From Marchantia polymorpha subsp. ruderalis (Eukaryota > Streptophyta > Marchantiopsida > Marchantiales > Marchantiaceae), in NCBI GenBank assembly GCA_037833965.1, contig AP031355.1, forward strand, positions 3,993,501 to 4,057,500: DNA of 64,000 nucleotides, written 5' to 3'. A program made the translations under genes and the position numbers. The notes beneath the pieces were generated by a model that was not told the DNA's origin, searched no databases, and was given only the letters and a program-made list of their open reading frames with translations. Shown here in pieces: positions 5,247 to 55,214 of this stretch. Every line of letters begins with the position of its first letter. Position 1 is the stretch's first letter.

Positions 5247-5550
5247 ACATCATACGCACTTCTCAGCTCTTGCAGAACAGCAACAAAAAGTTGGTGGGCA
5301 TCTTCTGAAACTCCAAATCCGGTGCAAGCTACTTAAGAGTCTGGACAGTTTTGACACTGGACACGACAATGCTCTTTGGATTCATAGAAGTCAACAATTT
5401 TATTTCAAGATATTGATGAAGGATCCATGCTGATTAAAAAGAATTTATGGATGTTCTGCCGGTCGGAACTCCATCATGTCTGTCCTTGCCCGGAACTCCA
5501 CCTTTCATCTAACTAAGTGCATGGGCGTATACTTGGTTGCGGGCTGAGTC

Positions 5551-7310: not shown

Positions 7311-7395
7311 ACGCCTCTTACAACCGGAAACTGACGATGATCGATGCGATTTCAAACCCCAGTCTTGCTGCTGTGCAATAAGTTTTGATGACTCT

Positions 7396-9189
7396 GTTAT
7401 CGGGTCCTCGATATTCTTGCACGTATACCTCAATGAAATGACTCCTGTTGCTCAATTCGCCTAAATTGTTGCACTATCCGGCCCCCGAGTCTATGGAGAA
7501 CCACTTCCTGGTGTCAAACTATGTGATGTCAGTCGCGATGGGGAAAATGCATGCAACGCTGAGTGTCTTCTGTTTCTAGATGCTCCTCGTTTGTTGCCCT
7601 TCATGTGGAATGAAGTTGAAAGAAAAGGTTGTCCACTTTTATGCTAGAACAGATTTCTGATGAGACTGTGCCACGCGCACAACCTCCGTCCAGATTGAAG
7701 AGTAATGAGAGGAAAAGGGAAAAGGTCAAATTTGTCCAAGTGAAGTTGAAACAGTCTTTCCATGTACTCGGGAGTGCTTCGTTGAACCAGACTGCAGGTG
7801 CTGTAAGTTCTTTCGTCCCCATCCGGATGAGACAACTTGTCGAGTTCAACTGGTGTTGCGACGTTAAAGATTAAAATTAAATTGGCCCTACTGCAGAACC
7901 TTCGAATCCCCATCAGGACTTTGCATCCATTCTCAGACATGGTCAAAGGTCTACAATACCACGTGGCCTGCGAAAAGGAGGCATTCCGTTTCATTAGGCC
8001 CTCGATCCAGACGAAGGACAAGAGGACAATACGCTAACGTAGCTGAGGATTATCCAGCTGGTTCTAGCTTCCCTCCAATGAAAGGACTCCGTGTTCTGTG
8101 GGGATTGAGGTCACGTCTCAGTGCTGAGCAGGAGCAGAAATCAATCGTTGCAAATTGGTTTCCGAGGGGAGGATGAATCTATTCACAAAGTCAGCCGAGA
8201 ATCTGAACAATGGCCTTGTCTTCGTGGGTGCAGACTGTGCGTGCTGATTCAAAGTCTTTGGCAGAAAAGTTCCTCACTGCCTGCGTGACGGAAGCCACAC
8301 TCCATGCATTTGGAGCAAGCCGGGTCATGCGTGCATGCCACTAAAATAAGCTAACTTCATGAACAGGCCTCACGAAGAAGACCTAGCATTAGCGAAGCCG
8401 GCAGCTCAGCCTTTAATTGCTTGCCTTCAATTGCCGCTGAGAGGCCTCATGGTTCCTTCCAGGCCTATGGAGAGGCCAGCATGAATCAAGCTTTCTATAT
8501 CGTGGTCAACAATGATAGTACCTGGTCGTAAGAAAATTCGATTGCTTTGAAGGAAAGTTTCCACACAGTTTCTTTGAAGAATGAATCTCGCCCCCACCCC
8601 ACCTCCAGCTCTGGAGCTGGTCTCGAGGTGTTGGAGAGAGGATTTTTTATCTTCGTCGTCAACAGCCGGACCTTGGAGCTCAGCCTCACTCGCTCAATGA
8701 GATGTCAGGTGCCATTCGGACCATATCCCCTCCCATGCGAACAAGTCCTGTCGGACTTGTTCGCAGCAGGCACGCAGACGGTCCAGGCCAAGCTCGGACT
8801 AGTTCGACCTTTCATAAAACGCGTAAATTGGCCGGAAGCTCTCAAGGACACAGTCTGGAGTCTCCGAGAAGAACATCATCTCATCATCGACGCCAGCTCG
8901 GAATAACTGGGCTTCCTTCACTGCACACACAACTTGCAGAGCTACGGCCTACACCACCGTCACTCTTCTTTCAGTTTGATTTGACGAACATTTCTGCCCT
9001 GAGATGAAAATCGATGGAGTCCATCGCAAGTTCGGAACTTTCGCGACAGACAAGAGTATGCGGATGGAGATTCTGAATTTTATGCTCAGCAAGTTTAGGC
9101 TCCGGACGGTCAGTTTTGATTCTACTGAGTGGATTTCTCGCTTCGAACTTGGAAAATTTCAGCATCTCGAGCAGAGATGATCACACAAA
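7396..9189. other. intergenic DNA with unrecognised ORFs
   Basis: Several ORFs of 60-125 aa overlap on both strands, the longest being 7644-8021 (-) and 8547-8906 (+). None shows a recognisable motif or a convincing splice structure. I see no supported gene. Confidence 0.4.
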
Positions 9190-9740: not shown

Positions 9741-12700
9741 TGGGGCTTTCTCAGGTCAATCCGCCTCTGTGGATCACATCGACTAGAATTGTTGACCAAG
9801 TCCTTCAATTGATTCACTCGGTGTCATCTTTTATAGTTATTTTTTTGGTGCGGACCAAGAGCGTCGAGAATTAATGTCTTGGTACACATCTTGTACATTA
9901 AGATTCGAAAATGTAACACTTTGTCGGCTAAACCACAGACGCCTCAATCGGCTCGAGCTCCATGCAATCGTCGGGCATGACTGTAAAGTGTATCAACCTA
10001 TGCGTACTTGACACAAATTCATTCAAGTGAATTCAAATGTACACGGCCACCACCTTCACGATCTGGATTAACACGCACTGAACAAATAAAGGGAAGACCG
10101 TGACTGTCAGCTTCGGCGGATCACAAAGTCCCATCGAAGAGGAAAACATCATGCCAGTAAGTAAGCCTGCAACATCGTACATGATGAAGGACCACAGTCA
10201 ATCGTAACCATGCTCGACCGCCCACTCACTGCCGTGCGGTGGTTGACAGTTTCAGAAGAGACTGGCTTTCAAATGTGGCTCTTCACGTTCTTCGATCCAC
10301 ACGAATTATTAGAAAAAATCCGTTAAAAAACGCCAGAACCACATCACTCATAGATCATCAAACTCATGCAAAATCTTCGATCTGTCTTCCCAACAGTCGC
10401 AGGAATCAGCGGCTTGCAACGGAAAGTCGGGGGAGTTTGAGATTTAAAGGGGAGCAAGGTGCAGAGATGGTGTGCACCGGACTGGGCAGAGGACCGTCCT
10501 TATACAACAGCTAGCTCTGCAATCTGGCGACAGTCGAGCCTTGGGAGGCGTCTGGTGTTTGTTGTAGCCGAGAATCGATCTCACAGCTGATTGATTCCTG
10601 GATCTACATACAGACGAGACTAGACGCATCCAGAGGCTGGCTTCTTGACAGCGTAGTGTAGCAGCTTATGTAGCGAGGTTTCAAGTCGGGTCACCTATGA
10701 TCCACGGAGCACGCATCTTCACGCTTTCATCGAGTCGTTTCATTTCAGGAGGTGGTTTGCCAAGACATGGTGGTCGATTTGCAAAGAATTCTCTCTCAAG
10801 ATGCGAAGATGCACCAACCGATTGGCTATGACAGACATTGGACTCCATTCAAAAAATAGCTTGTACTATATAGACGCAGGCACTCGGCCATAATCGATCA
10901 GCTGTTTGGAGCCGTCAGAGAAAGAATTTATCTTCAGCCCTGAAGTCTTGAAGGAAGGTCGATATGGCTGATATAGCTTGTATGGATATGCAAACGAAGC
11001 ATATCACACCAGACAGCTGATCCAAAGCACGAACGCTTCGAGAATCTCGTGAGGATATATAGTCATGGCGCTTGCCTGCCGAGCTCTGGCTTGAAAAGGG
11101 AAGCTGATAGCGACTGGAGTTTCAGTCACATTGCTGGACATTGTCCTCGGTGATATTTGGAGGTCGACATATGGACGTGGTGGTGAAGAAGTGGGTAACG
11201 ATAGAAGAGAGATGCCGGGCCGAGGATCCCAAATGGGATCCCAGGCCCAAGATGGTCCCCAAGGAGGAGGAGGGGTGCTTCTCTTGCAAGCACCGCCGAA
11301 AACTCGCAAGAACTTTGAAGATGTGGTGTAAGAAAATATTTTCATGTGGGATGAGATCTCATGACAGCGGGACGCATGCACAGAGACCGCCTTGACACGG
11401 AGTCCAGATTGAAGACATAAGATGTTATCGTTCCCACTCATGATCGGTGCAAAACACCTCTGACTTTCAACTTTCGGGGATCCACATGAGTTCCTCTATT
11501 CGACGGCAAAACATCTTCCACGATCAGAGTATTTGTTAGGGGGACCTACTTCTGATGAAATCGAACTAGCCCTGTACAGAAGCACACAGTTTGCCAAATG
11601 AGTTTGCAAGAGTGAGTCTATGAGGACAGGAAATCTAATCATGCCGGTCACATCATGCATGCCGTCTTCAGGACGAGGCCGAGGGGCACCAAGTCTGGAG
11701 CTTCCACAGGTCAAGTGAGGACTCACATTTTCTAAATACTGCAGTGTCGTTATGCTCAATGACTGCTGAAAGCCTGCAGTCTCGGAGTAGCGCAAGTCGG
11801 ATGAGTATCTTTCGACCAGGGACACTGTGCTTGGACCCGAACGACGGGATGGCATCGATTGTGACCCTGTTGTGGACAGCTCAAGTAAGCTTAGGACACC
11901 TATCGCATCAGTTTCACTCCTGGAATCCAAAGCTCTCGTTCCTACACCTCGAGATTCTCATGTCTGCCATCATGTACATAGATATGTCGTAATGTCTTCT
12001 GTTAAAGCGTGATGTTACCACATATCATACTCCGAAGGTCATTCAGCTCGTTCTTAGTGCCAGCTCTGTTTTTCGGTCAACACTTGCTTATTCAGATATG
12101 AAACAGAGTACATGTACAGATTACGTGCTGCAGAACTCTTGGCAGTCGATTGATTGCAAGTGGGAACGTCAGCTTGTTACTCATGAAGATATAAATATAT
12201 ATATTCAAGGTTCTTTGAGTGTGAATGTCCAAAACAAATGTCTGATGCTAATAAATTCTGGTTGACAACCAGTTTGAGCAATTGAACTGTTCATTTTTTC
12301 TAGTGTATAGAAATTGGTCCTTTGTCACTTATCTGGTCTATTTGGATCTCATAGATCCGTCTACGAGTATCAAGAAGAAATTTTGTCAAACAGTTTGTTC
12401 GGGGATGCTCACATAATTTGTTCAATGCCTATTGCTCTCCCAACCTGACAGATGTGTGAACAAGTCATACAGTTGGAATTGAACTGAATCGACAAAAAAG
12501 AGTAGGAAATAGTTTTCAACCAGCAATTGACGCGTCTCGGTTTCACCTGTATCATTGCCCCAAGCGCAAAGATACACTTGCACCGTCTTCAAAGCTGCTG
12601 TCTGTGATTGGCATGAGGATCTAAAAGGAGTTATCATATTAATTCGTCAGTATTATTGCATCCTGTATTCCACCGTCTCCTTAATTCCCAGCGAACTGCC

Positions 12701-18395: not shown

Positions 18396-20640
18396 CGATA
18401 ATATGCAGCCTGGCGATTTACAAAGATCAGGAACCTTTGTTTATGAACCATCGGCTAGATTCGATTCGACTGTTCCGGTTTGGAACTGGTGACCATTTTA
18501 ATGTCTGCAAACACCAGTCAACAGCAGACGCTGGATATCACTGCTTCGAGAAATGGCTTGATGTTACGTGAAGAATAATGCAAATTGTAGTCCCAACTCC
18601 ATGCCTAAATTTGATGAAAATATCTGGAAGTCATTTCTTCCTTAATTTTAATCCGACAGCAGATGAATATATTTGGAAGGCACTTCTTCCCCGGGTGCTG
18701 TTCATTGACCTATTTCCTCAAAGAATCCCTTTGTACACTCAAGAGGCCTTCATGGAGGCTGCTATGAAATTTGTCCGACAAGGATTTGGTGGTGACGATT
18801 CCGCGGATGATTAGGGAAGGGAGATCGCAGCTCTTCTTGCCCATATTGACCATGGAACTTCTGGTAAGTGATTAAAGTGATGGATTTGATTGCGCTGGTT
18901 ATCACTTTCCTTAGTAACATACTGCAGTTTCCTCATCTGAGAATATGTTATCCACGTTCGGATGTTTTTTCAACTGAAGAAATTATGAAATTAGTCACAA
19001 GTCCCAATGATGAAGTCTGAAACAACCAGAAATGTCCACGACTACTCCTGACCACTTTCAACGTGGACACATCTTAATTTGGGCGACACAGGATTGCTAT
19101 GCAAGGAGCACACCCCTCCGCCAATCACATACTGTGAACCCAGTATCAAGTTTCCTTGTCATTTAGGAAAAAGCTATCATGGTCGCAGGGCATTGCAGGT
19201 ATGCTGGTGAAGTTGTACCAAATCGACTTCTTTAAGATTTATGAACTCATTTCTGAATCTCGAACATCTGAATGTCAATGTTTATACTCATCTGGCAACA
19301 CCATGTGGAGCTAGGGTGTCAATTTTCTATGAATGATCCAGATATGGCCTGCTGCGAAGTGCACATGCGATCAGACTGTATTGATATGAAGAATTAGCTT
19401 GTCGCATGCATTAAGCCAAAAAGACAGCTGGTTGAGACACAAGTGTTGATGACCAGCAACTACAACTACAAACTGTGCGGCCAGGATATAGGTGAAACAG
19501 CCTTTTGTCCTGTCCTAAAAAGCTATCAGAGAATTCCGTTCTTTCATTCAAATCAGAGCTATGGTTCTGGTGTACGCCCCAGTGGGCGAAGCCAAACGAC
19601 TGCCAGGCTTTGGATTGACGATGAATATAATCAATGGATATGAATGGAGAAAATTCTCAGCTGCGGCTATTTCGCGTGTGCAGAAGTATAAAGGGTATTA
19701 TGAAAGACGTTTTTGACGTCCACCTAGGAGAAAACATAGATTGCTGTGATCAGAGGTCGTATTGATAACTCGGAGCACGTACAAGTGATGAGGAAATAAT
19801 AGTCTGACTAGATAAATCTGAAATATAGAAGTATAAAAATGTCTCTGTAGATGGCGCTTTTATGGAAAGGATCGGAGGCGAAGGATGTACAGCAGTGTTT
19901 CCAACCCCCCAGTCGATTTTAGAAGCTGTCAGAGAATCGTGTCAAAGATGTCCGAAGAACGACTATGAGTCTAGGAATTCATGTCAGCTGCTTTTGGCGT
20001 GTACAAGTATTTTGTGGACGAATTTGTTTTTCCCAGAGATAAAAAGATGAGAGAAGTTACCTCATACAAATGTATTTGACATTCATCATTGTAAACTGTC
20101 TTGCTCAACACATTAACCCTGACATGGAGCATTGGGCTGTAGACTTCTTGCTGTAGGCAAGAAGTCCTGTTTTAAATTTATTCCTTCATGTAAACATGCT
20201 AGAATACAGCAACACAGTGGTCATCTGAAACATATAAGATTGTCCTGACCAGCAATCATCATCAAGATAACGTCGTGAACAACTGGTGATCCACATCACA
20301 AGAGGTATCGCCATCAAGTTTACACAGTATATATCGACAGATGAGATTCATATGAGCAGTTTTGTATGCATGTTATGTATGCTTGCATGATAGATGTTTG
20401 TATCGATGTGTAAACAAAATTATGAAAACGAAGGATTGTCCATGACGATTGTTTGGATGAGTAATATGATTTCGAATGATTCGGGTCATAGAAACACAAG
20501 CCCTAGATGCAATGATAGTTTATGAATCTGGCAAGAAAATTTGTAAAGTATTTTACTAACTTGAAGCACAAGGTATCCAACATGGCTCTATGGAGTTTAT
20601 ACTTTAGGATATTGAACTCATAATCTTATGATGAAGATTC
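18396..20640 (+). pseudogene. hydrolase-chitinase fusion, decayed copy A (3' exons and flank only)
   Basis: It begins at the exon 3 border (ATGCAGCCTGG, 18403), directly beside the Ty3/gypsy fossil, and lacks exons 1-2. Exon 3 (about 18410-18864), exon 4 (about 19050-19210) and exon 5 (about 19455-19760) align with the intact copies but contain stops and small indels. An example is a stop after GDDSADD (about 18813) and a disrupted hydrolase end near 18570. The chitinase pieces read ALLPRVLFIDLFPQRIPLYT and ALLAHIDHGTSG, so the HG substitution is present here too. A 3' flank at about 19790-20640 is shared with copies B and C. Confidence 0.8.
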
Positions 20641-21514: not shown

Positions 21515-24274
21515 ATGGAAGAGAATGGCGATTCCAACAGGCTATCTCCGATTCGTCATTTTCGAGACGTGGTTACAGCCGTCTTGAACACAGACGCTTC
21601 AAATGAGGTAAATTCTTCATCCTTCTCCACGCATCTGCTGTCATATGAGCTGTAACGAACTTTCGACAACATCCTACATCTGAAGACAGATTCCAGTTGC
21701 GGCCGGTTTTCAGAATCTGTTCCACAAGCGGCGTAGTAGATTGAGGCTCTTCATGCTCGGTCAATTCTAGAGCCAGAATGAATGTTTAGCCTTGTTCGTC
21801 ATGTTTCTTAAATGTGCTAAGATCTTGAGTTGATTCTTCACATTTGTCGAAGGTGCAGGTTCTTGTCCCAACAGAAGAACAGGGTTCCAATTTACGTGCA
21901 ACTGAGATGGCATCTAGTTCCGACAATCGCCTCAATGACGCACTATTTGTGCTGTATGAACCACCGGATGGACTACCTTACGACACGGAGATAATATTCG
22001 TGCACGACGTATATACTGAACGCTGTAAGGATGCATGGAGCACGACATGGACCAGCGAAGAAGGCATATGCTGGCCAAGAGAATTCTTGGCAAAAAAGTT
22101 CCCAAGAGCTCGTATGTTATCGGTGTCTTATGATGCTTGTGTGACTACAAATAGTACCCAGGGCCGAATGGACTCCTTGTCCCTCGTTGCAGAGAATGTG
22201 TTGCTAAACCTTTTCCTTTCAACGGGCAACGTTGGGCAGACATACAACTGCCCAATTTTGTTTGTCGGACATGGCCTGGGATGCTTCGTAATAAAAAATC
22301 TGATGATCCAAGCTTGTGATACGTATAAGGGGCAACATGAGAGAAGGAATAAATTGTTGAGGAACGTCGGTGGGTTTGTGTTCTACTCTCCTTTCAACTC
22401 CGGAGTCAAATGGAATTTGTATCAATTTGAGCCTGGTGAAAGTAATCCACTGACGAACTGCATGAGACCATACCATCCAGGGCTTAGTCGACTCAATGAT
22501 GATTTCAGAAAACTTCGACAATTTATGAAGGACAGGCGAAATTCGAATGATCTGGAATTGTGGAAGGTTCTGACGATATGCGAGTCAGATCGAACGGTGA
22601 TTTTTTCTCTCATTCATACTATCTGGTGGTAGATGAGCTATTGATCCGTATGAGATGTATCGGGTTGCAAAAGTTTGCATTTTTTTTTCAAATTTTTTTT
22701 TTTTCTGAGAGTAACTGAAAAGGCAGCTTCTCTAACAGCAGGTTGATGGATGGACATGATGGACAGACTTCAAAGCTAGGGATGATTTCGATGTGCTTGA
22801 TTCGAAGATTTTAACCCCTTCTTCTCGTCTTTTGCTGATGATGTCACTACTTACTGGTTTATGATTCTAGAGTCTACTAAACCGTCTGCTCTTATGCAGT
22901 AAGCTAAAAGTCTGAAGACTCGCTCTATTGTGATGCAGCCTGGTGCTTTAGGAAGATCAGTAACATTTGTTCCAGAGGCATCGTGTAGACCAGACTGTGA
23001 TTACTTCTGGTTTGGAAATGGTGACCATTTCGATGTCTGCAAACACCAGTCAACGGGAGACGCTGTATATCAAAGCGTCGAAGAGTTTCTTGATAAAATC
23101 CTGAAGAGTGATAAATTATCTAGTCCGAACTCCATACCTGAGTTTGATCCGACAGCAGATGAAAACATTTGGAAGGCACTTCTCCCCCGGGAGGTGTTCA
23201 TTGACCTATTTCCGAACAGAAACCGTTTCTACACTTACGAAGCCTTCACGGAGGCTGCTATGACATTTATCCGAAAGGGATTTCTTGTCGACGGATCCGT
23301 GGAAGACCAGACAAGGGAGATCGCAGCTCTTCTTGCCCATTTCGACCACGGAACTAGTGGTAAGTGATGAAAGTGATGCATTGGATTGGGCTGGTTTCCA
23401 GTTTCCTTAGGAACTTATTGCAGTTTCATCATCTGGAAAAACAAGATCCATGTTCAGATGTTTTTGCAACTGAAGAGATATTGAGACTAGTCACAAGTCC
23501 CATTGATGAACAGACCTCAGAGATATCCTCGACTTCTGCTGACCAGTTTCAATGTGGACACACCTGGATTTGGGCGACACAGGACTGCTATACAAGGAGC
23601 ACAGTTGCCCGTCAAGCACGTACTGTGATCCCCAGATCGATTATCCTTGTGTTCCAGGAAAAAGTTATCATGGTCGAGGGCCATTGCAGCTGTGCTGGTA
23701 AAGTTGTACCAAATCGCATTGTTTGAGATTTGTTGGATGAATCTAGCGTGTCAAATTGTCCAGGAATTATGCAAATATGGCCTGCTGTGAAATGCACGTG
23801 CAAATCAGAGTGTAATGTTTTGAAGAACTAGCTTGCCACATGCATTGATGCCGAAATGTAGCTGGCTCTGATCGCGTTCAGACCTCTTTGTTGGTGACCA
23901 GGAACTACAACTACAAAATGTGCGGCGAAGGTATAGAGGATGACAGCCTTTTGTCCTGTCCAGAAAAGCTATCACAAGATCCCGTAATTGCATTCAAATC
24001 AGCGCTCTGGTTCTGGTGTACGCCCCAGTGGAACAAGCCATCCTGCCATTCTGTCATGACTGGAAAGTGGACTCCAGAATCTACGGACATCGAGGCCAAC
24101 AGGCTGCCAGGTTTTGGATTGACGATCAACATAATCAATGGAATTGAATGTAACAAAGAGTCAGCTGAGGCTAATTCGCGTGTGGAGAAGTACAAAAAGT
24201 TCTGTGAGCGTTTGCACGTTGACCCAGGAGAAAACATAGATTGCAGATATCAGAAGCCGTTTGGACAAGTCTGA
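21515..24274 (+). CDS. SERAC1-type hydrolase / GH19 chitinase fusion, copy 1 (intact, double pseudoenzyme)
   Basis: Exons 21515-21607, 21859-22596, 22939-23359, 23547-23697 and 23902-24274 give 591 aa; the donor of exon 2 is my least certain border. The start is the first ATG after an in-frame stop. Residues 35-310 are a SERAC1-type alpha/beta-hydrolase domain (IIFVHD, CWPREFLAKKFPRARMLSVSYDA, FVGHGLG, GDHFDVCK). The usual HG of the oxyanion loop is HD (80-81) and the nucleophile Ser is Gly170; His307 remains. Residues 365-591 are a GH19 domain (FYTYEAF, PGKSYHGRGPLQLCWNYNY, ALWFWCTPQWNKPSCH, GFGLTINIING). The catalytic HE is HG (414-415), the second Glu (435) is kept, and Cys467 replaces the usual Ser/Thr. 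Exon 3 encodes both the hydrolase end and the chitinase start, so the fusion is real. No signal peptide is seen, so a cytosolic location is expected. Activity is doubtful; carbohydrate binding or sensing is only a guess. Confidence 0.85.
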
Positions 24275-27039: not shown

Positions 27040-28880
27040 AAGTGATCGTTGTGTGCTGAGATTCAGCACTGGTGGTCAGTCGGATTCAGTTCTCGACCTC
27101 GCTCACCATGCTGGCTATATTCCTTCCTTCTTCTCAAACTTGTCTGTCAATTTTCATCTTCTTCCTTGCATGCTCTGGATCTCCGATCTATCGGACGAAC
27201 GTGTTGTCAATTTGACGTGAACAAAAGAGTCTGACCATAGTGCACAAGTCTTGACAGATTCCAGTATTCACAGATGGTCAGAAGACAAGCCAAGAAATTG
27301 TGCAGTATTGGCTGTATGGAGTGACCTCTCAGATTCGCATTGCCACGCTTTGCTACTGGGGTTGTCTTCTACACTCGTAGCTGTCTCTCACGCTGGTTCA
27401 CTGTGAACAGTTGGGAGGAGAGCTTCTAGGTCGACAGTGCATCTCTGGGAGCTGCTTGTTGGCGACGAAGAAGAACAACTGTTGAAGAAATTAATGAGGT
27501 CGAAGAAGCTTTTGATGATTTTTATTTCATCAATCCCTTACTTCCAACTACCTCACTGTACCTTCAAAAGTTTAGTCCCAATGGGTCAAATATTCTATAT
27601 TCTCTGTTTTTGTCAAATTATATACCGAAATGCTTGAAATTTTATTAATTTTGGAATTTACAATTCATACAGTCTTCTCTATCAAGATCTTTGATAATAA
27701 ATTCCACTCAAAGAAAATTAGAATGAAATATCTTGAAAAACATCCCACTTCATTATCCACTCGATATTGATATGAACAGTTTTTTTCTTGGTACAGAACA
27801 TTTTGATATGTTATTGAACTTTCAAAAGTCAATCCTAATACAACTATATTTTTTCGTTCAATTCACAAAATCAAATATATATTTTTTCTCTTTTTTTTAT
27901 CTTATAGGAAACTGTAGTGCACCTGTCGTGAAATCCTGTCTTGTGAGACTATTTTAGTTGAAAGATGATAATGTAGTATACAGAGTTAAACCTCCCGATA
28001 GTGTCACCTCTTGTGAGTAACATACTACCATTAGTGACATGAAAAAGAAGAACCATTAGTTCATAACGGGTAATTTTATCCAATAATAACAGTACGCCGC
28101 TATTGTTAATAGTGTCATTAGATTTTTCAAGAGTAATTATGTCGACCTTTAATAGCTACCATAATTACCAGAAGTCTTTGTTTAGAGTTAAAAATATACT
28201 TTCGGAGGTTGCTGATTGGTCTATCCCGAGTCTTCTCAGTGATTACAAAATTCTCAGACCTTGAATCCGTGTCACTGATCAAATGATGTGAGCGAAGACG
28301 TCGACGATATCATACGTCTGTCTCTGCCCACTCGTTGCAATTTGGTTCTGCGATGTTTAAACCCTTGTGGGAAGAGTGCTGGAAGGAAATTGAGACAAAT
28401 CGAGTGGAAAGAAGAACAGGTCGGTTTTTCCAGTGGGATATTTTCACGCCTTTTCAAGTTTGTCAGGATGGAGACAAATTCATGAGGAGTAAAACAAGTC
28501 GAAAGATTTCAATTTTCAAATTTTCATGGGTGGCTCCGGGCTGATTCAGAAAATCCAAAATTTCCAACTTTGTCTTCACGTCCAAACAACGCTTGCGTTT
28601 AGACATGTGTGAATTAAAACGGGTGTAGATTAAGAGAGAAAAAAACTCACTCCAAACAAGTACAGATTGCGTTGAGAGAGAAACGACTACCTAATGCATA
28701 ACAACTGAGACAGATTGTAGCGAGAGAGACTACCTAATGCATAACAACTGAGACAGGTTGTAATGAGAGAGAAAGAAATGCCCCGAAGGCACTATGACAG
28801 ATTTGTTGAGAAAGAAAGAAGTGCCCACCGAAGGCAAATAAGGCGGGAAAAGATTAGATATCATCTTGCGAGTGACAGTC
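27040..28880 (+). repeat. non-coding block duplicated before decayed copies B and C
   Basis: The block starting GATTCAGCACTGG (27060) recurs from 38131 with high similarity through about 27960, then with gaps. It precedes copy B here and copy C there, so it marks the left part of the large duplication unit. A stretch at 28190-28560 has an unrecognised ORF and no partner in the second block. Confidence 0.7.
28685..28770. repeat. tandem duplication, 43-bp unit
   Basis: The unit beginning GACTACCTAATGCATAACAA is present twice in direct succession with two or three differences. A shorter GAGAGAAAGAAATGCC / AAAGAAAGAAGTGCC pair follows. Confidence 0.8.
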
Positions 28881-31750
28881 TCTTGCAAAATTGAGTGCTA
28901 CTATAACTGTACACGAAAGTGTCGTGTAACTAACAGTAGTGGAAAGTATCAGACATCTGAGTCCCGTCTAACTCGCCTGCTGGTGGTCCTGGTGCCGCAT
29001 ACAGGCAACTAAATGAAGAAAAATTGAACAAAGTTGTGAATGTGATGTGAGTCACGGAGAGAAACCCAAGCACCGCGGAGCCATGGATCGACACAGGCAT
29101 CAGTATTAAATCCGGCTCGGACTTTTGAGACACTCTTGGTCCAATTGCGGGCCACATTTGTGCTATCGAGCGAAATACAGCCGCTCAGAATGCACAGGCC
29201 TTCTACAAGACTATGCGCAGTCCTTCTACGATGCGCCTCTCGATTAGTTCTTTACGGATGTACAAGAGGACAGTGTCGAGTTTACAGTACGTGCTTTTAA
29301 TACTGACGTCAATGTCAGCCCCATGCTCAAAAGGGACTATGTACTGCTCATGATCGGAGCGACCAATATAAATCTGGAAGATATTACCCGATGCAGTGCT
29401 GATGATGCATATGCTGGCCAAGAGAATTCTTGCCAAAAAAGTTCCCAAGAGCTCGTATATTATCGGTGTCTAATGATGCTTGTGTGACTTCGAATAGTAC
29501 CCGGGGCCGAATGGATTCCTTGTGCAGCGTTGCAGACAATCTGATGGTTAACTTTTTCCTTCCAAGAAGCAACGGAGCGCAGACATACCACTGCCCAATT
29601 TTGTTCGTCGGGCATGGCCTGGTATGCTTCGCTATTAAGAATCTGATGTTCAAAGTGAAGGGTATGAAGGGTATGAGGAGAACGAAGAGAAAAGGTTGAA
29701 ATTGTTGAGGAACGTAGGTGGCTTTGTGTTCTACTCTCCTTTCACCTCCGGAGTCAAATGCAATTTAAATGCATATGAGTCTGGTCAAAGTAATCCACTG
29801 TCGGACTGCATTAGATCACACCATCCAGAACTTAGTCAACTCAAAGATAGTTTCACAAGGCTTCGACGCCTTGTGCAGAAGAGGCGAAATTCGACAAATT
29901 CGTGGACGGTTCTGCCTATCAGCGAGTAACATCAAACAGCATTAAAAAAGGTGAATTCTGAAGTGTAAGATGAGATTTTATTTTCATCCGCATGAGATGT
30001 ATCGGGTTGCACATGTTTGCAGTTCTTTTAACTCTCTTTCACTTTACGATGATCTTCTGAGAGGAACCTAATATTCAGCCTCTATATCAGTCCTAAATTA
30101 TTGGTGAAAGCGTGAACTTCAGATTGTCATATGGACATGATGGAGAGAACATAAAGCTAGGGGTGAATTCAATTTCTTGATTGTAAAAAATTAGGCCTTT
30201 TTTATATTCTATACAGATATCACTACGTACTGTGTTCTGATTCTAGAGTCTGCTAAACCGTCTCCTCGTACGTAGTGACAAATTCTACAGATTGGCTCTA
30301 CTGTGATGCAGCCTGGCGGTTTACAAACATCAGAAACCTTTGTTTCAGAGGCAACGGCTAGACTCGACTGTGAACTGTTCCGGTTTGGAACTGGTGACCA
30401 TTTTAATGTCTGCAAATACCAGTCAACAGCAGACGCTGAATATCAATGCTTCGAGAAAGGGCTTGATGTTATCTTGAAGAGTGGTGCAAATTCTAGTCCC
30501 AATTCGATACCTGAGTTTATTCCGACAGCAGATGAGTATATTTGGAAGGCACTTCTTCTCCAGGAGCTATTCATTGACCTATTTTCTTATTTTCATTGAC
30601 CTATTTTCTCCAGGATCTGTTCTTTTCCCTTTCTACACTTACAAAGCTTTCATGGAGGCTACTATGAAATTTCTCCCAAACGGATCTGGTGTCGACGAAT
30701 CTGCGGATGATCAGAGAAAGGAGATCGCAGCTCTTCTTGCCCATATTGACCATGGAACTTCTGGTAAGTGATTAAAGTGATGGATTGGATTGCGCTGGTT
30801 TTCAGTTTCCTTACTAACATGTTGCAGTCTCCTCATCTGAAAATTTGTAATCCATGTTCTGATGTTTTCTCAACTGAAGAAATAATGACATTAGTCACAA
30901 GTCCCAATGATGGACATACATCTGAAACAACCAGAAATGTCCACGACTTCTGGTGACCAGTTTCAACGTGGACACACCTTGATTTGGGCGACACAGGATT
31001 GCTATGCAAGGAGCACACCCCTCCGTCAAGCACATAATGTGAACCCAGTATCGAGTTTCCTTGTTATCCAGGAAAAAGTGATCATGGTCGCAGCGCATTG
31101 CAGGTATGCTGGTGGAGTTGTACCAAATCGAGTTGTTTAAGACTTATAGGATCAACTCATTTCTGAAGCTCTAACATCTGAATGTAAATGTTTATATTCA
31201 TTTGGCAACACCATGTGGAGCTAGGGTGTGAATAGTCTATGAATGATCCAGGTATGGCCTGCTGCGAAGTGCACATGCTAATCAGACTGTAATGATTTGA
31301 AGAATTAGCTTGTCGCATGCATAAATGCCAAAATACAGCAGGTTGAGACACATGTGCTGATGACCAGAAACTACGACTACAAACTGTGCGGCCAGGATGT
31401 AGGTGATAACAGGCTATTGTCTTGTACTGAAAAGCTATCAGAAAATTCCGTTCTTTCATTCAATCAGCGCTATGGTTCTGGTGTACGCCCCAGTGGGCGA
31501 CGCCATCGTGCCATGCTGTCATGAGTGGACAGTGCACCCCATCAGCTGCGGACATCGAAGCCAAACGGTTGCCAGGCTTTGGATTGACGATCAATATAAT
31601 CGATGAATACGAATGTAACAGATTCTCAGCTGCGGCTAATTCGCATATGCAGAAGTAAAAACGGTATTGTGAAAGACGTTTTTGACGTCGGCCCAGGATA
31701 AAACATAGATTGCTGTGATCAGAGTTCTTATTGATCAGTCGGAGCACATA
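28880..31750 (+). pseudogene. hydrolase-chitinase fusion, decayed copy B
   Basis: An upstream block (28880-29400) joins directly to the middle of exon 2. The start exon, intron 1 and the first third of the hydrolase domain are deleted, and the sequence resumes at LAKKFPRARI-like residues (about 29425). The rest of exon 2 (to about 29928) still reads FVGHGLV but is interrupted near 29695. Exon 3 (about 30311-30766) carries a local duplication of the TTCATTGACCTATTTTC segment at about 30570-30610. It ends ALLAHIDHGTSG. Exons 4 and 5 (about 30950-31120 and 31370-31660) are present with small lesions. It is the paralogous type shared with A and C. Confidence 0.8.
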
Positions 31751-33444: not shown

Positions 33445-36222
33445 ATGGAAAGGAATAGCGGCTCCATCTGGCTATCTCCGATTCGTTGTCTTCGAGACGT
33501 GTTTACATGCATCTGGAGTTCAGATGAAAGTTTGAACACCGACGCTTCAAATGAGGTAACTTCTTCATCCTTCTCCACGCATCTGCTGTCATATGAACTG
33601 CAACGAACTCTCGACAAGATCTTACATCTGAAGACAGATTCCAGTTGGGGCCGGTTTTCACAATCTGTGCAACAAGCGGCGTAGTAGATCGAGCCTCTTC
33701 ATGCTCGGTCAATTCTAGAGCTGCAATGAATATTTAACCTTATTTCGTCATGTTTCTAAAATGTGCTATGATCTTGAGTTGATTCTTCACGTTTGTCGAA
33801 GGCGCAGGTTCCTGTCCCAACAGTTCGTGACCCAACAGAGGAAGAGGGTTCCGACGTACGTGCAACTGAGACAGCATCTAGTTCCGACAATCGCCTCAAT
33901 GACGCACTGTTTGTGTTGTATGAACCACCGGATGGACTACCTTACGACACGGAGATAATATTTGTGCACGACCTATATACTGAAGGCTCTGAAGATGCCT
34001 GGAAGACGACATGGACCAACGACGATGGCACATGCTGGCCGAGAGACAACTTGGCAAAAAGGTTCCCAAGAGCTCGTATATTATCAGTGTCTTATGATGC
34101 TTGTGTGACTACAGATAGTACCCACGGCCGTATGGACTCTTTGACCCTCATTGCAGAGTATGTGATGGTCAACATTTTCGATTCAGGATGCAACGTTGGG
34201 CAGACATACAACTGCCCAATTTTGTTCGTCGGGCATGGCCTGGGATGCTTCGTTCTTAAGAATCTGATGATCCAAGCTTGTGAATGGTATAAGGGGAACA
34301 AAGAGAAAAGGAAGATATTGTTGAGGAACGTCGGTGGCTTTGTGTTCTACTCTCCTTTCAATTCCGGAGTCAAATGGGATCCGTTTGAATATGAGTCTGG
34401 TGAAAGTAATCCACTGACGGATTGCATGAGACCATACCATCCAGAGCTTAGTCGACTCAATGATGGTTTCAGCAAACTTCGACGATTTATGCAGGAATTG
34501 CGAGAATCGCAGGATCTTTGGAAGGTTTTGACAATCTGCGAGTCAGATCAAACGGTGATTTTTTATCTCGTTCATAGTTTTTGGTGAAAGATGAGCTATT
34601 GATCCGTATGAGATGGATCGGGTTGCAAAAGTTTGCAGTTTTTTTCAACTCTATTTTATTTTCTGAGAGGAGCTGAAAAGGCAGCTTCTCTAACAGCAGG
34701 TTGATATGTGGACATTATGGAGAGACGTCAAAGCTAGGGATGATTTTGATGTGCTTGATTCGAGGATTTTAACCCCTTTTTCTATTCTTTTGCTGATGAT
34801 GTCACTACTTACTGACTGGTTTATGATTCTAGAGTATGCTTAACCGTCTGCTCTTATGCAGCAAGCTAAAAGTCTAAAGACTCGCTCTATTGTGATGCAG
34901 CCTGGTCCTTTACAAAGAACAAAGACCTTTGTTGTAGAGGCAACGGCTAGACCAGACAGTGATTTGTTTTTCTCTGGAAAGGGTGACCATTTTCATGTCT
35001 GCAAACACCAGTCAACAGAAGACACTGGATATCAATGCTTTGAGAAATGGCTTGATGATATCCTGAAGAGGGATAATAAATCTTGTCCCAACTCCATACC
35101 TGAGTTTAATCCGATAGCAGATGAAAATATTTGGAAGGCTCGTCTCCCCCGGAAGGTGTTCATTGACCTATTTCCGAGCAGAATCCGTTTCTACACTTAC
35201 GAAGCCTTCACGGAGGCTGCTATGGCATTTATCCCAAAGGGATTTCTTGTCGACGGATCTGTGGAAGACCAGACAAGGGAGATCGCAGCTCTTCTTGCCC
35301 ATTTCGACCACGGAACTAGTGGTAAGAGATAAAAGTGATGCTTTGGATTGGGCTGGTTTCCAGTTTCCTTAGGAACTTATTGCAGTTTCATCATCTGGAA
35401 AAATGTTATCCATGTTCGGATGTTTTTGCAATTGAATAGATATTGAAACTCGTCGCAAGTCCCATTGATGAACAGACATCAGAGATATCCTCGACTTCTG
35501 CTGACCAGTTTCAATGTGGACACACCTTGATTTGGGCGACACAGGACTGCTATACAAGGAGCAAAGTGACCCGCCAGACACATACTGTTTACCCAGTAAA
35601 GATTTTCCTTGTTATCCAGGAAAAAGCTATCATGGTCGAGGGCCATTGCAGCTGTGCTGGTAATGTTGTTTGAGATTTGTGGGGTGAAGCTAGCGTGTCA
35701 AATTGTCTAGGAAAAATCCAAATATGGCCTGCTGTGAAACGCACGTGCAAATCAGAGTGCAATGTTTAATGTTTTGAAGAACTAGCTTGTTGCATGCATT
35801 GATGCCGAAATGCAGCTGGCTCTGATCGGGTTGAGACAAATGTGTTGATGATCAGGAACTACAACTACAAAATGTGCGGCGAAGGTATAGGTGATGACAG
35901 CCTTTTGTCTCGTCCTGAAAAGCTATCACAAGATCCCGTAATTGCGTTCAAATCAGCGCTCTGGTTCTGGTGTACGCGCCAGTGGAACAAGCCATCCTGC
36001 CATTCTGTCATGACTGGAAACTGGACTCCACTATCTTCGGACATCGAGGCCAACAGGCTGCCAGGTTTTGGATTGACGATCAACATAATCAATGGAATTG
36101 AATGTAACATAGAGTCAGCTGAGGCTAATTCTCGTGTGGAGAAGTATAGAAAGTTTTGTGAGCTTTTGGCCGTCAACCCAGGAGAAAACATAGATTGCAG
36201 ATATCAGAAGCCGTTTGGATGA
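33445..36222 (+). CDS. SERAC1-type hydrolase / GH19 chitinase fusion, copy 2 (intact, double pseudoenzyme)
   Basis: Exons 33445-33555, 33808-34554, 34901-35321, 35509-35659 and 35856-36222 give 598 aa with the same phases as copy 1. Exon 1 encodes 37 aa, six more than copy 1 (VFTCIWSSDESLN in place of VVTAVLN). The hydrolase part has IIFVHDLYTE, FVGHGLGCFVLK and GDHFHVCK; again there is no Ser nucleophile. The GH19 part has FYTYEAFTEAA, LLAHFDHGTSG (HG for HE), LLYKEQS, PGKSYHGRGPLQLCWNYNY and ALWFWCTRQWNKPSCH, ending QKPFG. Every exon is open and every border has GT-AG. It looks expressed-competent, but both catalytic centres lack key residues. An upstream in-frame TGA about 40 bases before the ATG supports the start. 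Confidence 0.85.
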
Positions 36223-39199: not shown

Positions 39200-42085
39200 A
39201 GAGTTTCGCTACTAAGAGTATCAGATATGTGAGTCCCGATTTACTCGCCTGCTGGTGGTCCTGGTGCCGCATACAGGCAACTAAATCAAGAAAAATCGAA
39301 CAAAGATGCGAGGCTGGTAGCGGAAACTACTGCGGGAAACCCAAGCACTGCGGAGCCATGGATCGACACAGCCATAAGTCTTAAATCCGGCTCGGACTAT
39401 GGAGACACTCTTGGTCAAATTGCGGGGCCAGATTCGTTCTATCGAGCCAAACACAGCCGCTCAGAACGCGTTTTTACAAGACTATGCACAGGCTTTCTAT
39501 GATGCGCCTCTCGATCAGTACTTTACGGATGTACAAGTGGACAGTGTCGAGTGCACAGTACGTGCTTTAGTATCCACGTCAATGTCAGCCCCATGCTCAA
39601 AAGGGACTATGTACTGCTTATGAGCGGAGCGACCAATATAAAATCTGGAAGATATTACCCGATGCAGAGTTGATGAGAGCAGGATGATGTTTATCAGCGA
39701 AAGCTCGATGGAAGAGAACAGCCGTTACATCTGGCTATCTCCGACTCGTCGTCTTCGAGGCGTGATTACAGGCGTCTGGAATTCAGATGAGAATTTGAAC
39801 ACCGACGCTTCAAGTGAGGTAAATTCTTCATCCTTCTCCACGCATATGTCATATGAACTGTAACGAGATTTCGATGAGAGCTTGTATCTGAAGACGTATT
39901 TCCTGTTGCGGCCGCTTTCCACATTCTGAGCCACAAGCGGCGTAGTGGACCGAGGATCTGGATGCTGAGTCAATTCGAGAGCCACAATGAAATGCTATGA
40001 TCTTGATTTAACTATTCAAGTTCGTTGAAGGCGCAGGTTCCAAAAGAAGAGGGTTCCACCGTACGTGCAACTAAGAGGGCATTTATGTTCGCCAGTCGCA
40101 TCAATGACGAGCTGTTTGTGCTGAATGCACCGTACGACTGTACTTGCTGAATGCCGTGCGCAGACGAGGCGAAATTCGGCAATTTTGTGGACGGTTCTGA
40201 CTGTCAGCGATTAACATCAAACAGCATTAAAAAGAGGTGATTTTAATCCGCATGAGATGTATCGGGTTGCACAGGTTTGTAGTTTTTTAAAACTCTGTTT
40301 CACTTTACGATGATCTTCTGAGAGGAACCTAAAATTCAGCTTCTATATCGGTCCTTTCTTATTGGTGAAAGCGTAAACTTCAGATTGTCATATGGACGTA
40401 ATGGAGAGACCATAAAGCTAGGGACAATTTCAATTTGCTTAATTGCTTGGTATTTAACTAAATTATTTTCAGACAGATTTTAGTAGAACTAAAAAAAATA
40501 ATGTAATTGTTATTGGGTCAACTCATCTCCCTAAAAAGTAGATCCAGCTTTAATTTCTCCAAATGGAAATCGTTAACCCTTTTTTATATTCTATACCGAT
40601 GTCACTACGCACTGTGTTCTGATTCTAGAGTCTGCTAAACCGTCTCCTCGTATGTAGTGACGAAATCTACAAACTCGCTCTACTGTGATGCAGCCTGGCA
40701 GTTTACAAAGATCAGGAACCTTTATTTAAGAGGCAACGGCTAGATTCGACTGTGATTTGTTCCGGTTTGGAACTGGTGACCTTTTTAGTGTTTGCAAACA
40801 CCAGTCAACAGCAGACGCTGAATATCAATGCTTCAGTTGATGTTATCTTGAAGTGGAGTGCAAATTCTAGTCCCAATTCCATACCTGGGTTTAAACCGAC
40901 AGCAGATGAATATATTTGTAAGGCACTTCTTCCCCGGGAGGTGTTCATTGACCTATTTCCTCACCGAACCCCTCTCTACACTCAGGAAGCTTTCATGGAG
41001 GCTGCTATGAAATTTGTCCCACAGGGAATTGGTGGTGACGGATCCGCGGATGATCAGAGAAGGGAGATCGCAGCTCTTCTTGCCCATATTGACCATGGAA
41101 CTTTTGGTAAGTGATTAACGTGATGGATTTGATTGCGCTGGTTTTCAGTTTCCTTAGTAACATATTGCAGTTTCCTCATCTGAAGATATATTATCCATGT
41201 CCGGATGTTTTTTCAACTAAAGAAATAGTGAAATTAGTCACAAGTCCCAATGATGGACATACATCTGAAACAACTAGAAATGTCCACGACTTCTGGTGAC
41301 CAATTTCAACGTGGACACACCTTGATTTGGGCGACACAGGATTGCTATACAAGGAGTACAGTTGCCACATAATGTGAACCCAGTATTGATTTTCTTCGTC
41401 ATGCGGGAAAAAGCTATCATGGTCGAGGGGCATTGTAGGTATGCTGGTGAAGTTGTACCAAATCGCATTGTTTGAGATTTGTTGATGAAATCATTTCTGA
41501 AGCTTGAACATCTGCATGTCAATGTTTAAATTCATTTGGAAACACCATGTGGAGGTAGGGTGTCAATTGTCTATGAATGATCCAGATATGGCCTGCTGTG
41601 AAGTGCACAAGCGAATCAGACTGCAATGATTTGAAGAATTAGCTTGTCGCATGCATTAATTCCAAAATACAGCTGGTTGAGACACATGTGCTGATGACTA
41701 GGAACTACAACTACAAACTGTGCGGCCAGGATGTTGGCGATAACAGCCTATTGTCCTGTACTGAAAAGCTAGCAGAAAATTCCGTTCTTTCATTCAAATC
41801 AGCTCTATGTTTCTGATTCTGGTTCTGATTTACGCCCGTGGGCGAAGCCATTGTGCCATGCTGTCATGACAGGACAGTGGACTCCATCAGCTGCGGATAT
41901 CGAAGCCAAACGGCTGGCAGGCTTTGGAGTGGCGATCAAAATAATAAATGTAATTACATGTAACAACTTCTCAGCTGCGGCTGATTCAAATGTGTAGAAT
42001 TTGAAAGGTATGGTGAGAATTTTAACGTCCACTCAGGAGAAAACATAGATTGCTGTGATCAGAGGTCGTTTTGATAAGTCGGAGC
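39200..42085 (+). pseudogene. hydrolase-chitinase fusion, decayed copy C
   Basis: The upstream block (39200-39690) keeps an open frame with AEPWIDTAISLKSGSDYGD and another with QDYAQAFYDAPLDQYFTDV. Exon 1 is preserved (about 39709-39819: MEENSRYIWLSPTRRL to NTDASSE with a GTAAAT donor). Exon 2 is reduced to about 100 bases at each edge, so most of the hydrolase domain is deleted. Exon 3 (about 40688-41106) has lesions in its first part, then a long open stretch (LPREVFIDLFPHRTPLYT, ALLAHIDHGTFG). Exon 4 (about 41300-41450) and exon 5 (about 41698-42060) are frame-damaged. It cannot encode the fusion. Confidence 0.8.
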
Positions 42086-51458: not shown

Positions 51459-54200
51459 ATGGAAAGGAATAGCGGTTCCATCTGGCTATCTCCGATTCGT
51501 CGTCTTGATGAGAGTTTGAACACCGACGCTTCGAATGAGGTAAATTCTTCATCCTTCTCCACGCATCTGCTGTCATATGAACTGTAACGAACTTTCGACA
51601 AGATCTTACATCTGAAGACAGATTTCAATTGCGGCCGTTTCTCACAATCTGTGCCACAAGCGGCGTAGATCGAGGCTCTTCATGCTGGATCAATTTTAGA
51701 GCCACAATGAATATTTCACTCTGTTCATCATGCTTTTCAAATGTGCTATGATCTCACGTTTGTCGAAGGCGCAGGTTCTCGTCCCAACAGAAGAACAGGG
51801 TTCCGACGTACGTGCAACGGAGACGGCATCTAGTTCCGACAATCGCCTTAATGACGCACTGGTTGTGCTGTATGAACCACCAAAAGGACAACCTTACGAG
51901 ACGGAGATAATATTTGTGCACGACCTATATACTGAACGCTGTAAAGATGCATGCAAAACGACATGGACCAGCGGAAACGGCTTATGCTGGCCAAAAGATT
52001 TGTTGGCAAAAAAGTTCCCAAGAGCTCGTATGTTATCGGTGTCTTATGATGCTTGTGTGACTACAAATAGTACCCAGGGCCGAATGGACTCCTTGTACCT
52101 CGTTGCAGAGAAGGTGGTGGGCAGCCTATTCCTTTCAAGAGCCAACGTTGGGCAGACATACAACTGCCCAATTTTGTTCGTCGGGCATGGCCTGGGATGC
52201 TTCGTTATTAAAAATCTGATGATCCAAGCTCGTGATCAGTGGAATGAGGAAAGTAAAAATGAGAAAAGTCGAAATTTGTTGAGGAACGTCGGTGGGTTTG
52301 TGTTCTACTCTCCTTTCAACTCGGGAGTCAAATGGAATTTGTATCAATTTGAGCCTGGTCAAAGTAATCCACTGACGAACTGCATGAAAATACACGATCC
52401 GGAGCTTAGTCGACTCAATGGTGCGTTCAGCCGTCTTCGACGACGTATGCAGAAACATCGAGATTCGGAGGAGCTGTGGCAGGTTCTGACGATCTGCGAG
52501 TCAGATGAAACAATATCAAGAACGGTGATTTTTTCTCTCGTTCACACTCTTTGGTGGTAGATGAGCTATTGATTGGTATGAGATGTATCGGGTTGCAAAA
52601 GTTTGCAGTTTTTTTTCAACTCTTTTATTTTCTTAGAGGAACTGGAAAGGCAGCTTCTCTGACAGCAGATTGATATATGGACTTGATGGGGAGACTTGAA
52701 AGCTAGGGATGATTTCGATGTGCTTGATTCAAAGATTTCAACCCCTTTTTCTATTGTTTTGCTGGTGATGTCAATACTTACTCGTTTATGATCCTAGAGT
52801 CTGCTAAACCATCTGCTCTTATGCAGTAAGCTAAAAATCTAAAGACTCGCTCTATTGTGATGCAGCCTGGTCAAACACAAAGATCAGGAACCTATGTTTC
52901 AGAGGGAACGTCTAGATTCGACTGTGATTCGTTCTGGTTTGGAAATGGTGACCATTTTAATGTCTGCAAACACCAGTCAGAGGGAGACGCTGTATATCAA
53001 AGCGTCGAAGATTTCCTTGCTGCTATCCTTAAGAGTGATAAATCAGCTAGTCCGAACTCCATACCTGATTTTAATCCGACAGCAGATGAAAAAATTTGGA
53101 AGGCACTTCTCCCCCGGAAGGTGTTCATTGACCTATTTCCTAACAGAATTCCTTTCTTCACATACGAATCCTTCACGGAGGCTGTTATGACATTTATCCC
53201 AAAGGGATTTGCTGTCGACGGATCTGTGGACGAGCAGAGAAGGGAGATCGCAGCTCTTCTTGCCCATTTCGACCACGGAACTAGTGGTAAGAGAGAAAAG
53301 TGATGCATTGGATTGGGCTGGTTTTCAGTTTCCTTAGGAACTTATTGCAGTTCCATCATATGGAAAAATGTTATCCATGTTCGGATATTTTTGTAACTGA
53401 AGAGATATTGAAACTAGTCACAAGTCCCTTTGATGAACAGACATCAGAAATATCCTCGACTTCTGCTGACCAGTTTCATTTGGACACACCTTGATTTGGG
53501 CGACACAGGACTGCTATACAAGGAAAGCAGTGACCAGCAAGACACACACTGTTTACCCAGTAAAGATTTTCCTTGTCATCCAGGAAAAAGTTATCATGGT
53601 CGAGGGCCATTGCAGCTGTGCTGGTAAAGTTGTACCAAATCCCATTGTTTGAGATTTATTGGATGAATCTAGCATGTCAAATTGTCTAGGAAATATGCAA
53701 ATATGGCCTGCTGTGAAATGCACGTGCAAATCAGAGTTTAATGATTTGAAGAACTAGCTTGCCGCATGCATTGATGACGAAATGTAGCTGGCTCTGATGG
53801 GTTTCAGACCTTTTTGTTGGTGACCAGGAACTACAACTACAAAATGTGCGGGGAAGGTATAGGTGATGACAGCCTTTTGTCCTGTCCTGAAAAGCTATCA
53901 CAAGATCCCGTAATTGCGTTCAAATCAGCGCTCTGGTTCTGGTGTACGCGCCAGTGGAACAAGCCATCCTGCCATTCTGTCATGACTGGAAACTGGACTC
54001 CAGAATCTACGGACATCGAGGCCAACAGGCTGCCAGGTTTCGGATTGACGATCAACATCATCAATGGAACTGAATGTAACAAAGAGTCAGCTGACGCTAA
54101 TTCACGTGTAGAGAAGTATAAAAAGTTCTGTGAGCGTTTGCACGTTGAACCAGGAGAAAACATGCATTGCAGATATCAGAAGCCGTTTGGACAAGTCTGA
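51459..54200 (+). CDS. SERAC1-type hydrolase / GH19 chitinase fusion, copy 3 (complete exons, one apparent frameshift)
   Basis: Exons 51459-51539, 51775-52524, 52866-53286, 53474-53623 and 53828-54200 correspond one to one with copies 1 and 2. Exons 1-3 and 5 are open with the same phases. The hydrolase half has IIFVHDLYTE and FVGHGLGCFVIK; the GH19 half has FFTYESFTEAV, LLAHFDHGTSG, PGKSYHGRGPLQLCW and ALWFWCTRQWNKPSCH. Exon 4 is 150 rather than 151 bases: TTTCATTTGG replaces TTTCAATGTGG near 53477, so standard splicing shifts the frame and loses the C-terminal half of the GH19 domain. Unless a different splice site is used, this is a recent pseudogene or encodes a shortened protein. A 14-base loss near 51750 also joins an ATG-led frame to exon 2, offering an alternative start at 51730. 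Confidence 0.75.
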
Positions 54201-55129: not shown

Positions 55130-55214
55130 AGATCCATCAAAACTTTTTGCACAGCACAAAGACTGAGGTTTGAAATCGCATTGATCATCGTCAGTTTCCA
55201 GTTGTAAGAGGCGG

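What the first reader, a model, noticed from the sequence alone, without database searches (positions are those of the whole stretch)
21515..24274. A SERAC1-type hydrolase fused to a GH19 chitinase domain in one gene
Exon 3 is a single open frame that encodes the hydrolase end (GDHFDVCK, the family's His region) and then the chitinase start (FYTYEAF...REIAALLAHFDHG). The five exons join in phase into one frame in two independent copies. SERAC1-type domains are usually linked to other regulatory domains and GH19 domains to chitin-binding or signal peptides; I know of no described fusion of the two.
Basis: partly seen in the sequence, partly recalled or inferred. Interest (0 to 1): 0.93.

Follow-up and report, generated by a model that had tools for sequence, protein, structure and literature searches.

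The report
Two dead enzymes fused in plants
A plant gene, present in three intact tandem copies, joins a lipase-like domain and a chitinase domain into one predicted protein in which both enzyme active sites have been lost, which suggests that it binds or recognises something, perhaps in defence against microbes, instead of cutting it.

Summary
A five-exon gene at 21515-24274 encodes a SERAC1/DUF676-like alpha/beta-hydrolase domain and a complete GH19 domain, joined inside exon 3 by a linker of about 25 residues. The window holds six tandem copies: three intact (21515-24274, 33445-36222, 51459-54200), three broken. GH19 is certain (Pfam 8.7e-59). Pfam finds nothing in the hydrolase half, but tblastn links it (1e-7) to hydrolase domains of bacterial ABC-three-component proteins, and an AlphaFold model matches alpha/beta-hydrolases. 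Both halves look protein-coding: no stops in three copies, exon indels in multiples of three, clustered replacement changes.

The hydrolase nucleophile is Gly (10 of 10 bacterial relatives have Ser); the GH19 catalytic Glu/Glu/Ser is Gly / His, Gln or Ser / Cys in the intact copies. The GH19 core is conserved while the loop at the former catalytic base varies fast. Best reading: a non-catalytic recognition protein, perhaps immune, since liverwort NLRs carry hydrolase domains of this general kind (literature only). Transcripts, localisation, ligand and organism are unknown; the exon 4 acceptor is uncertain (579 or 591 residues).

The parts
21515..21607 (+). copy A exon 1 (31 codons, start ATG)
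   Evidence: length differs among A, C, E by multiples of 3; in-frame TAG 9 codons upstream of the ATG in A and E, not in C
21859..22596 (+). copy A exon 2: most of the SERAC1/DUF676-like alpha/beta-hydrolase domain; Gly170 (GHGLG) where relatives have the nucleophile Ser
22939..23359 (+). copy A exon 3: end of the hydrolase domain (GDHFDVCK), linker of about 25 residues, start of GH19 up to HGTS; no in-frame Met before the GH19 domain
23583..23697 (+). copy A exon 4 (alternative start 23547): GH19 centre, former catalytic base now His424, fast-changing loop 424-441, Cys455 in place of the catalytic Ser
23902..24274 (+). copy A exon 5: GH19 C-terminal half and stop
33445..36222 (+). intact copy C (33445-33555, 33808-34554, 34901-35321, 35545-35659, 35856-36222)
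51459..54200 (+). intact copy E (51459-51539, 51775-52524, 52866-53286, 53509-53623, 53828-54200)
18403..19707 (+). broken copy F: matches from exon 3 on only, with stops and frame changes; same hydrolase-GH19 junction
29409..31676 (+). broken copy B: no exon 1 match, frame changes and stops; keeps GHGL, HGTSG and the junction
39709..42071 (+). broken copy D: most of exon 2 not matched, frame changes and stops; keeps HGTFG and the junction

Best explanation
One plant gene makes a protein of about 580 residues in which a SERAC1/DUF676-like alpha/beta-hydrolase domain is followed by a complete GH19 domain. SHOWN by sequence: the architecture, its six tandem copies, the in-phase exons of three, and the loss of catalytic residues in both domains. 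INFERRED: it is translated as one protein, probably intracellular (no hydrophobic N-terminus by eye; no predictor was run), and works without catalysis. The GH19 groove would act as a binding module for a chitin-like sugar, or as bait for a microbial protein that acts on chitinases, with specificity set by the fast-changing loop at the old active site. The degenerate hydrolase domain would be the relay or assembly half, as related domains may be at the N-terminus of NLR and bacterial conflict proteins. Tandem birth and death with fast-changing patches fits a recognition role in immunity.
For: Architecture and copies. GH19: Pfam E 8.7e-59, 1.7e-60 and 1.4e-56 for A, C, E; no gap through the active site against ancestral chitinase Anc4, 3.8e-81. 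The catalytic triad of moss BcChi-A is Glu61/Glu70/Ser102 (passages of PMC7844276); here the acid is Gly in 6 of 6 copies, the base is Glu in 0 of 6 (His A, B, F; Gln C; Ser E; Tyr D), and the Ser is Cys in 6 of 6 (read from the sequences). Hydrolase: tblastn 1e-7 over residues 75-333; relatives match DUF676 and ABC-3C CTD9; Ser in 8 of 8 loci (sequences) and 2 of 2 plasmid proteins, Gly in 4 of 4 window copies that keep the stretch. Fold: pLDDT 61, pTM 0.64, 42 PDB matches at E<=0.001, most of the 50 listed being lipases, esterases or other alpha/beta-hydrolases. Constraint: replacement changes clustered (0 of 5000 shuffles), silent and intron changes not; GH19 442-536 pN 0.016-0.034 against intron 0.093-0.100; loop 424-441 pN 0.36 (A-C) and 0.45 (A-E). 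Literature, passages only: liverwort HNL class (PMC3352924); two Marchantia hydrolase domains gave HR-like responses in N. benthamiana (PMC11218826).
Against: No transcript or protein data. Overall dN/dS is high (0.76-0.81), which also fits relaxed constraint. Windows were chosen after seeing the data; the scan-wide test of the fastest window gave P 0.019, and that window lies in the hydrolase. The excess in loop 424-441 is not seen for C against E (P 0.21). Pfam and NCBIfam see nothing in the hydrolase half. Inactivated Anc4, the closest solved relative, did not bind fungal hyphae, with or without loop II; only Anc5 and Anc5 without loop I did (passages of PMC11018821), which speaks against simple cell-wall binding. 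No comparison with real HNL sequences was possible; no NB-ARC was seen in the parts of the window scanned. 'Bryophyte' is a guess.
Confidence: 0.45

Rival explanations
1. A decaying gene family: the fusion arose once, multiplied in tandem, and is losing function; the three open copies are simply young.
For: Three of six copies are broken; overall dN/dS 0.76-0.81; exons 2 and 3 diverge at least as much as introns in the three pairs on the whole.
Against: No stop in three copies where 10.1 are expected under neutrality (0 of 5000 simulations); at least 6 of 6 exon indel events against 2 of 8 intron events are multiples of 3 (counted by me); GH19 core pN is about 3 to 6 times below the intron rate.
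Confidence: 0.15
2. A non-catalytic lectin or structural protein without an immune role, like the plant chitinase-like proteins that act in growth or as lectins.
For: Known inactive plant GH19 groups exist: CHIT 3 (Glu lost or mostly Lys) and CHIT 4 (Glu to Ala) (passages of PMC8547705). The GH19 core is under strong constraint.
Against: Those groups have a loopful loop pattern and other Glu replacements; the fast patches and tandem turnover suggest a moving target.
Confidence: 0.2
3. Two genes wrongly joined: hydrolase-only transcripts end in intron 2 (stop at 22630) and GH19 transcripts start within or before exon 3.
For: Donor of intron 2 (GTGATT) departs from the usual GTAAGT (recalled); retention of intron 2 runs open to a stop at 22630; an in-frame ATG lies just before exon 3 at 22933.
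Against: The hydrolase would be cut short: its last part lies in exon 3 and bacterial relatives align across the splice. Exon 3 has no Met before the GH19 domain in 3 of 3 intact copies. The junction is kept in 6 of 6 copies.
Confidence: 0.08
4. A working two-headed enzyme, chitinase plus lipase or esterase, with moved catalytic residues.
For: Folds and much of the GH19 core are kept; Glu423 lies next to the base position.
Against: Acid, base and water-holding Ser of GH19 and the hydrolase nucleophile are all replaced.
Confidence: 0.05

Closest known systems
Loopless GH19 chitinases (moss BcChi-A; ancestral Anc4, PDB 8hne)
   Same: Whole domain; spacing of the two former Glu positions (+9, as Glu61/Glu70, in the short-exon form); Trp right after the Ser position, a mark of loopless types
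   Different: All three catalytic residues replaced; fused behind a hydrolase domain; no signal peptide by eye
Plant chitinase-like proteins (GH19ED groups CHIT 3 and CHIT 4)
   Same: GH19 fold with the catalytic Glu lost
   Different: Other replacements (Lys or Ala there, Gly here) and loopful ancestry; the passages seen name only CBM18 as a partner domain of plant groups (PMC8547705)
Hydrolase-NLR (HNL) class of liverworts
   Same: Plant protein with an N-terminal SERAC1/sesB-related alpha/beta-hydrolase domain (passages of PMC3352924 and PMC4986451)
   Different: GH19 in place of NB-ARC and LRR; sequence relation not tested here
ABC-three-component proteins with hydrolase plus CTD9 (e.g. 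Sulfitobacter WP_203200082.1)
   Same: Among the nearest sequence relatives found for the hydrolase half, over most of the domain
   Different: Bacterial, Ser nucleophile present, CTD9 in place of GH19; 22-25% identity

Membership tests
GH19 (Pfam PF00182) | Profile match over the domain | tested here: met
   E 8.7e-59, 1.7e-60, 1.4e-56 in A, C, E
GH19 chitinase (active) | Catalytic acid Glu, base Glu and water-holding Ser | tested here: not met
   Glu absent at both places in 6 of 6 copies, Ser to Cys in 6 of 6 (sequences)
GH19 chitinase (active) | Hydrolyses chitin | not testable with these tools
   needs protein
SERAC1/DUF676-like alpha/beta-hydrolase | Profile match in Pfam or NCBIfam | tested here: not met
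   no hydrolase family at E up to 10
SERAC1/DUF676-like alpha/beta-hydrolase | Sequence relation to members over the domain | tested here: met
   tblastn 1e-7 and 3e-4 to two proteins that match DUF676 above its cut-off
SERAC1/DUF676-like alpha/beta-hydrolase | Alpha/beta-hydrolase fold | tested here: met
SERAC1/DUF676-like alpha/beta-hydrolase (active) | GxSxG-type nucleophile Ser | tested here: not met
   GHGLG in A, C, E; GHGLV in B; stretch not matched in D and F
Hydrolase-NLR (HNL) | NB-ARC and LRR behind the hydrolase | tested here: not met
   GH19 follows instead
Hydrolase-NLR (HNL) | Hydrolase domain of the HNL clade | not tested
   no HNL sequence was available
Plant chitinase-like protein groups CHIT 3/4 | Loopful loop pattern and CLP-type Glu replacement | tested here: inconclusive
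   Glu to Gly, not Lys or Ala; with the short exon 4 the best match is loopless-type Anc4, but loop 2 depends on the exon 4 acceptor

The most novel reading that the evidence does not exclude
A class of intracellular plant immune sensor that lacks NB-ARC and LRR: a pseudo-chitinase senses a microbial ligand or effector through a diversifying loop at its dead active site and passes the signal through a pseudo-hydrolase domain of the kind used by liverwort NLRs and bacterial conflict systems.
Probability: 0.25. Interest if true: 0.88.

Novelty: new variant of a known kind. Interest (0 to 1): 0.62.

Why it matters
If translated as predicted, it would be a two-domain architecture made wholly of disabled enzymes, kept and multiplied by a plant. 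It would put a GH19 groove next to a domain type that, taken from liverwort NLRs, can trigger cell-death-like responses in leaves, and give a compact system in which to test whether plants turn secreted defence enzymes into internal sensors.

Tried and rejected
Own-genome search: none held. First AlphaFold job on exon 2 with three rows was poor (pLDDT 42), and its PDB search gave nothing at E<=0.001. First genome-contig scan with the plant alignment: 66 stretches matched a pattern, none a relative. Phage tblastn with copy E: no match; profile search of the PDB with exon 2: none. PADLOC gave one weak match (0.056), not used. A bacterial promoter scan of 22550-23360 says nothing about a plant gene. 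The viral-contig scan gave one weak relative (22% identity), not examined. The rest of the window was searched in Pfam only in part: six array ORFs, ten chosen ORFs, 56.4-64.0 kb on the + strand in three frames, 7.5-12.3 kb in six frames. That the fusion is undescribed rests only. The windows were chosen by eye. In counting exon indels I left out the 6-base length difference at the end of exon 5, which comes from an earlier stop in copy C.

Full report
The thing. At 21515-24274 on the + strand lies a five-exon gene that encodes a hydrolase-like domain followed by a GH19 domain. It belongs to a tandem array on the same strand: intact copies A (21515-24274), C (33445-36222) and E (51459-54200), and broken copies F (matches 18403-19707), B (29409-31676) and D (39709-42071). 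The modelled introns of the three intact copies begin with GT and end with AG, and the exons join without a stop to 579, 586 and 579 residues. The junction between the two domains lies inside exon 3 and is kept in all six copies, so it is not an assembly slip at one place. The 500 bases on either side of the gene differ more between copies (K 0.17-0.63) than most exons do.

The exon 4 acceptor. In copy E one base is missing just after that acceptor and the frame is lost; the acceptor before 23583 keeps the frame in 3 of 3 copies. The short form aligns without a gap through the active site with ancestral chitinase Anc4, 276.7 bits, and gives the +9 spacing of the two catalytic positions numbered Glu61 and Glu70 in moss BcChi-A. 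The long form scores 263.2 bits at best (only the GH19 part was the query) but scores better in Pfam, 210.8 against 199.6 bits. Both may be used; RNA must decide.

Is the N-terminal half a SERAC1-type hydrolase? Pfam and NCBIfam found no hydrolase family at E up to 10, and no PDB chain matched it by sequence. But tblastn against plasmid records found two relatives, E 1e-7 over residues 75-333 and 3e-4 over 63-334. These are N-terminal domains of proteins with the ABC-three-component CTD9 domain, and both match DUF676 above its cut-off. Eight prokaryotic relatives came from a scan with the joint alignment (65 stretches matched, 8 confirmed). Of the six of these scanned in Pfam, four carry CTD9, one has a weak STAND NTPase match below cut-off and one carries TIR and TPR. 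With seven of the eight loci as alignment rows, an AlphaFold model of exon 2 reached pLDDT 61 and pTM 0.64; Foldseek gave 42 PDB matches at E<=0.001, and most of the 50 listed are lipases, esterases, thioesterases or other alpha/beta-hydrolases. The model leans on those rows (without them: pLDDT 42 and no match at E<=0.001), TM-scores are modest (0.43 at best), and exon 2 lacks the last part with the His. The relatives align through the exon 2-3 splice to residue 333-334, which supports that splice.

Both active sites are gone. In the hydrolase the nucleophile motif is GHGLG in A, C and E and GHGLV in B; the stretch is not matched in D and F. All 8 of 8 prokaryotic loci and both plasmid proteins have Ser there. 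The His is kept (GDHF), and the ATPHQGS/GTPHQGS stretch of the two plasmid relatives reads SPFNSGV. In GH19 the catalytic triad of BcChi-A is Glu61, Glu70 and Ser102 (passages of PMC7844276). By alignment these are Gly415, His424 and Cys455 in copy A. The acid is Gly in 6 of 6 copies and the Ser is Cys in 6 of 6; the base is His (A, B, F), Gln (C), Ser (E) and Tyr (D). Since broken copies share the Gly and the Cys, these changes most likely predate the array.

Is it a real protein? Three tests say yes. First, with the observed number of substitutions spread at random over copy A's coding sequence, 10.1 stops are expected and none of 5000 simulations left the frame open. The hydrolase part alone gave 0.001 and the GH19 part 0.009; exon 3 alone gave 0.106, which is not decisive. 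Second, I count at least six exon indel events, all multiples of three, and eight intron events, two of them multiples of three. Third, replacement changes are strongly clustered along the protein (0 of 5000 shuffles at windows of 5, 10 and 20 codons), while silent changes and intron changes are not. Long runs without any replacement occur in both halves: 155-175 and 197-216 in the hydrolase, 403-423, 442-467, 476-496 and 518-536 in GH19. So both halves appear held at the protein level. Against this, overall dN/dS is 0.76-0.81, far from strong purifying selection.

Fast patches. GH19 residues 442-536 differ at 0.016-0.034 of replacement sites against 0.093-0.100 of intron sites (P 0.002 to 8e-6), whereas residues 424-441, which begin at the former catalytic base, differ at 0.36 (A-C) and 0.45 (A-E) (P 3e-6 and 3e-9), but only 0.15 for C-E (P 0.21). 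In the hydrolase, residues 217-304 differ at 0.20-0.24. These windows were picked after looking. A scan over all 18-codon windows with shuffled codons gave P 0.019 for the fastest window, which lies in the hydrolase (245-262, tied with 280-297); 424-441 is one count behind, level with windows near 180-197. Gene conversion between copies could also produce uneven divergence.

Working hypothesis. A protein with two kept folds, no catalytic residues, conserved blocks and variable patches most likely binds. [quoted passage not shown] two such Marchantia domains caused HR-like responses in N. benthamiana (PMC11218826); the fungal sesB-like lipase domain is found in human SERAC1, and a sesB-related fold was noted in the bryophyte NLR (PMC4986451); inactive plant GH19 groups serve as lectins or regulators (PMC8547705). 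A result against a simple chitin-binding role: inactivated Anc4, with or without loop II, did not bind fungal hyphae (PMC11018821). From all this I infer a recognition role, perhaps in immunity. Ligand, location and expression are unknown. That the gene is a bryophyte's is a guess from these parallels.

Novelty. I saw no paper describing this fusion in the listings, but plant proteomes could not be searched here, so the architecture may be present in databases without having been discussed. I file it as a new variant of a known kind: a new domain pairing built from known families, with both members disabled.

Noticed in passing
5245-7396 and 55129-57484: Inverted duplication on either side of the array (81-88% identity) that carries plastocyanin-like ORFs at 6519-6962 (-), E 3e-14, and 55737-56159 (+), E 2e-8.
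   Followed up: partly
12442-12573 (-): U4 spliceosomal RNA match at 46.1 bits, just at the family's cut-off of 46.
   Followed up: no
27048-27827 and 38120-38890: Direct repeat of 0.78 kb, 85% identical, between gene copies; it suggests that the duplicated unit includes some spacer.
   Followed up: no
49153-49477: Tandem duplication of 162 bases, 98% identical.
   Followed up: no
59935-60420 (+): Open frame that looked like a microbial-type terpene synthase by eye; neither Pfam nor the PDB sequences supported it.
   Followed up: yes
L010:357-4046: Phycisphaerales MAG protein with hydrolase, TIR and TPR parts in one 1230-residue frame.
   Followed up: no
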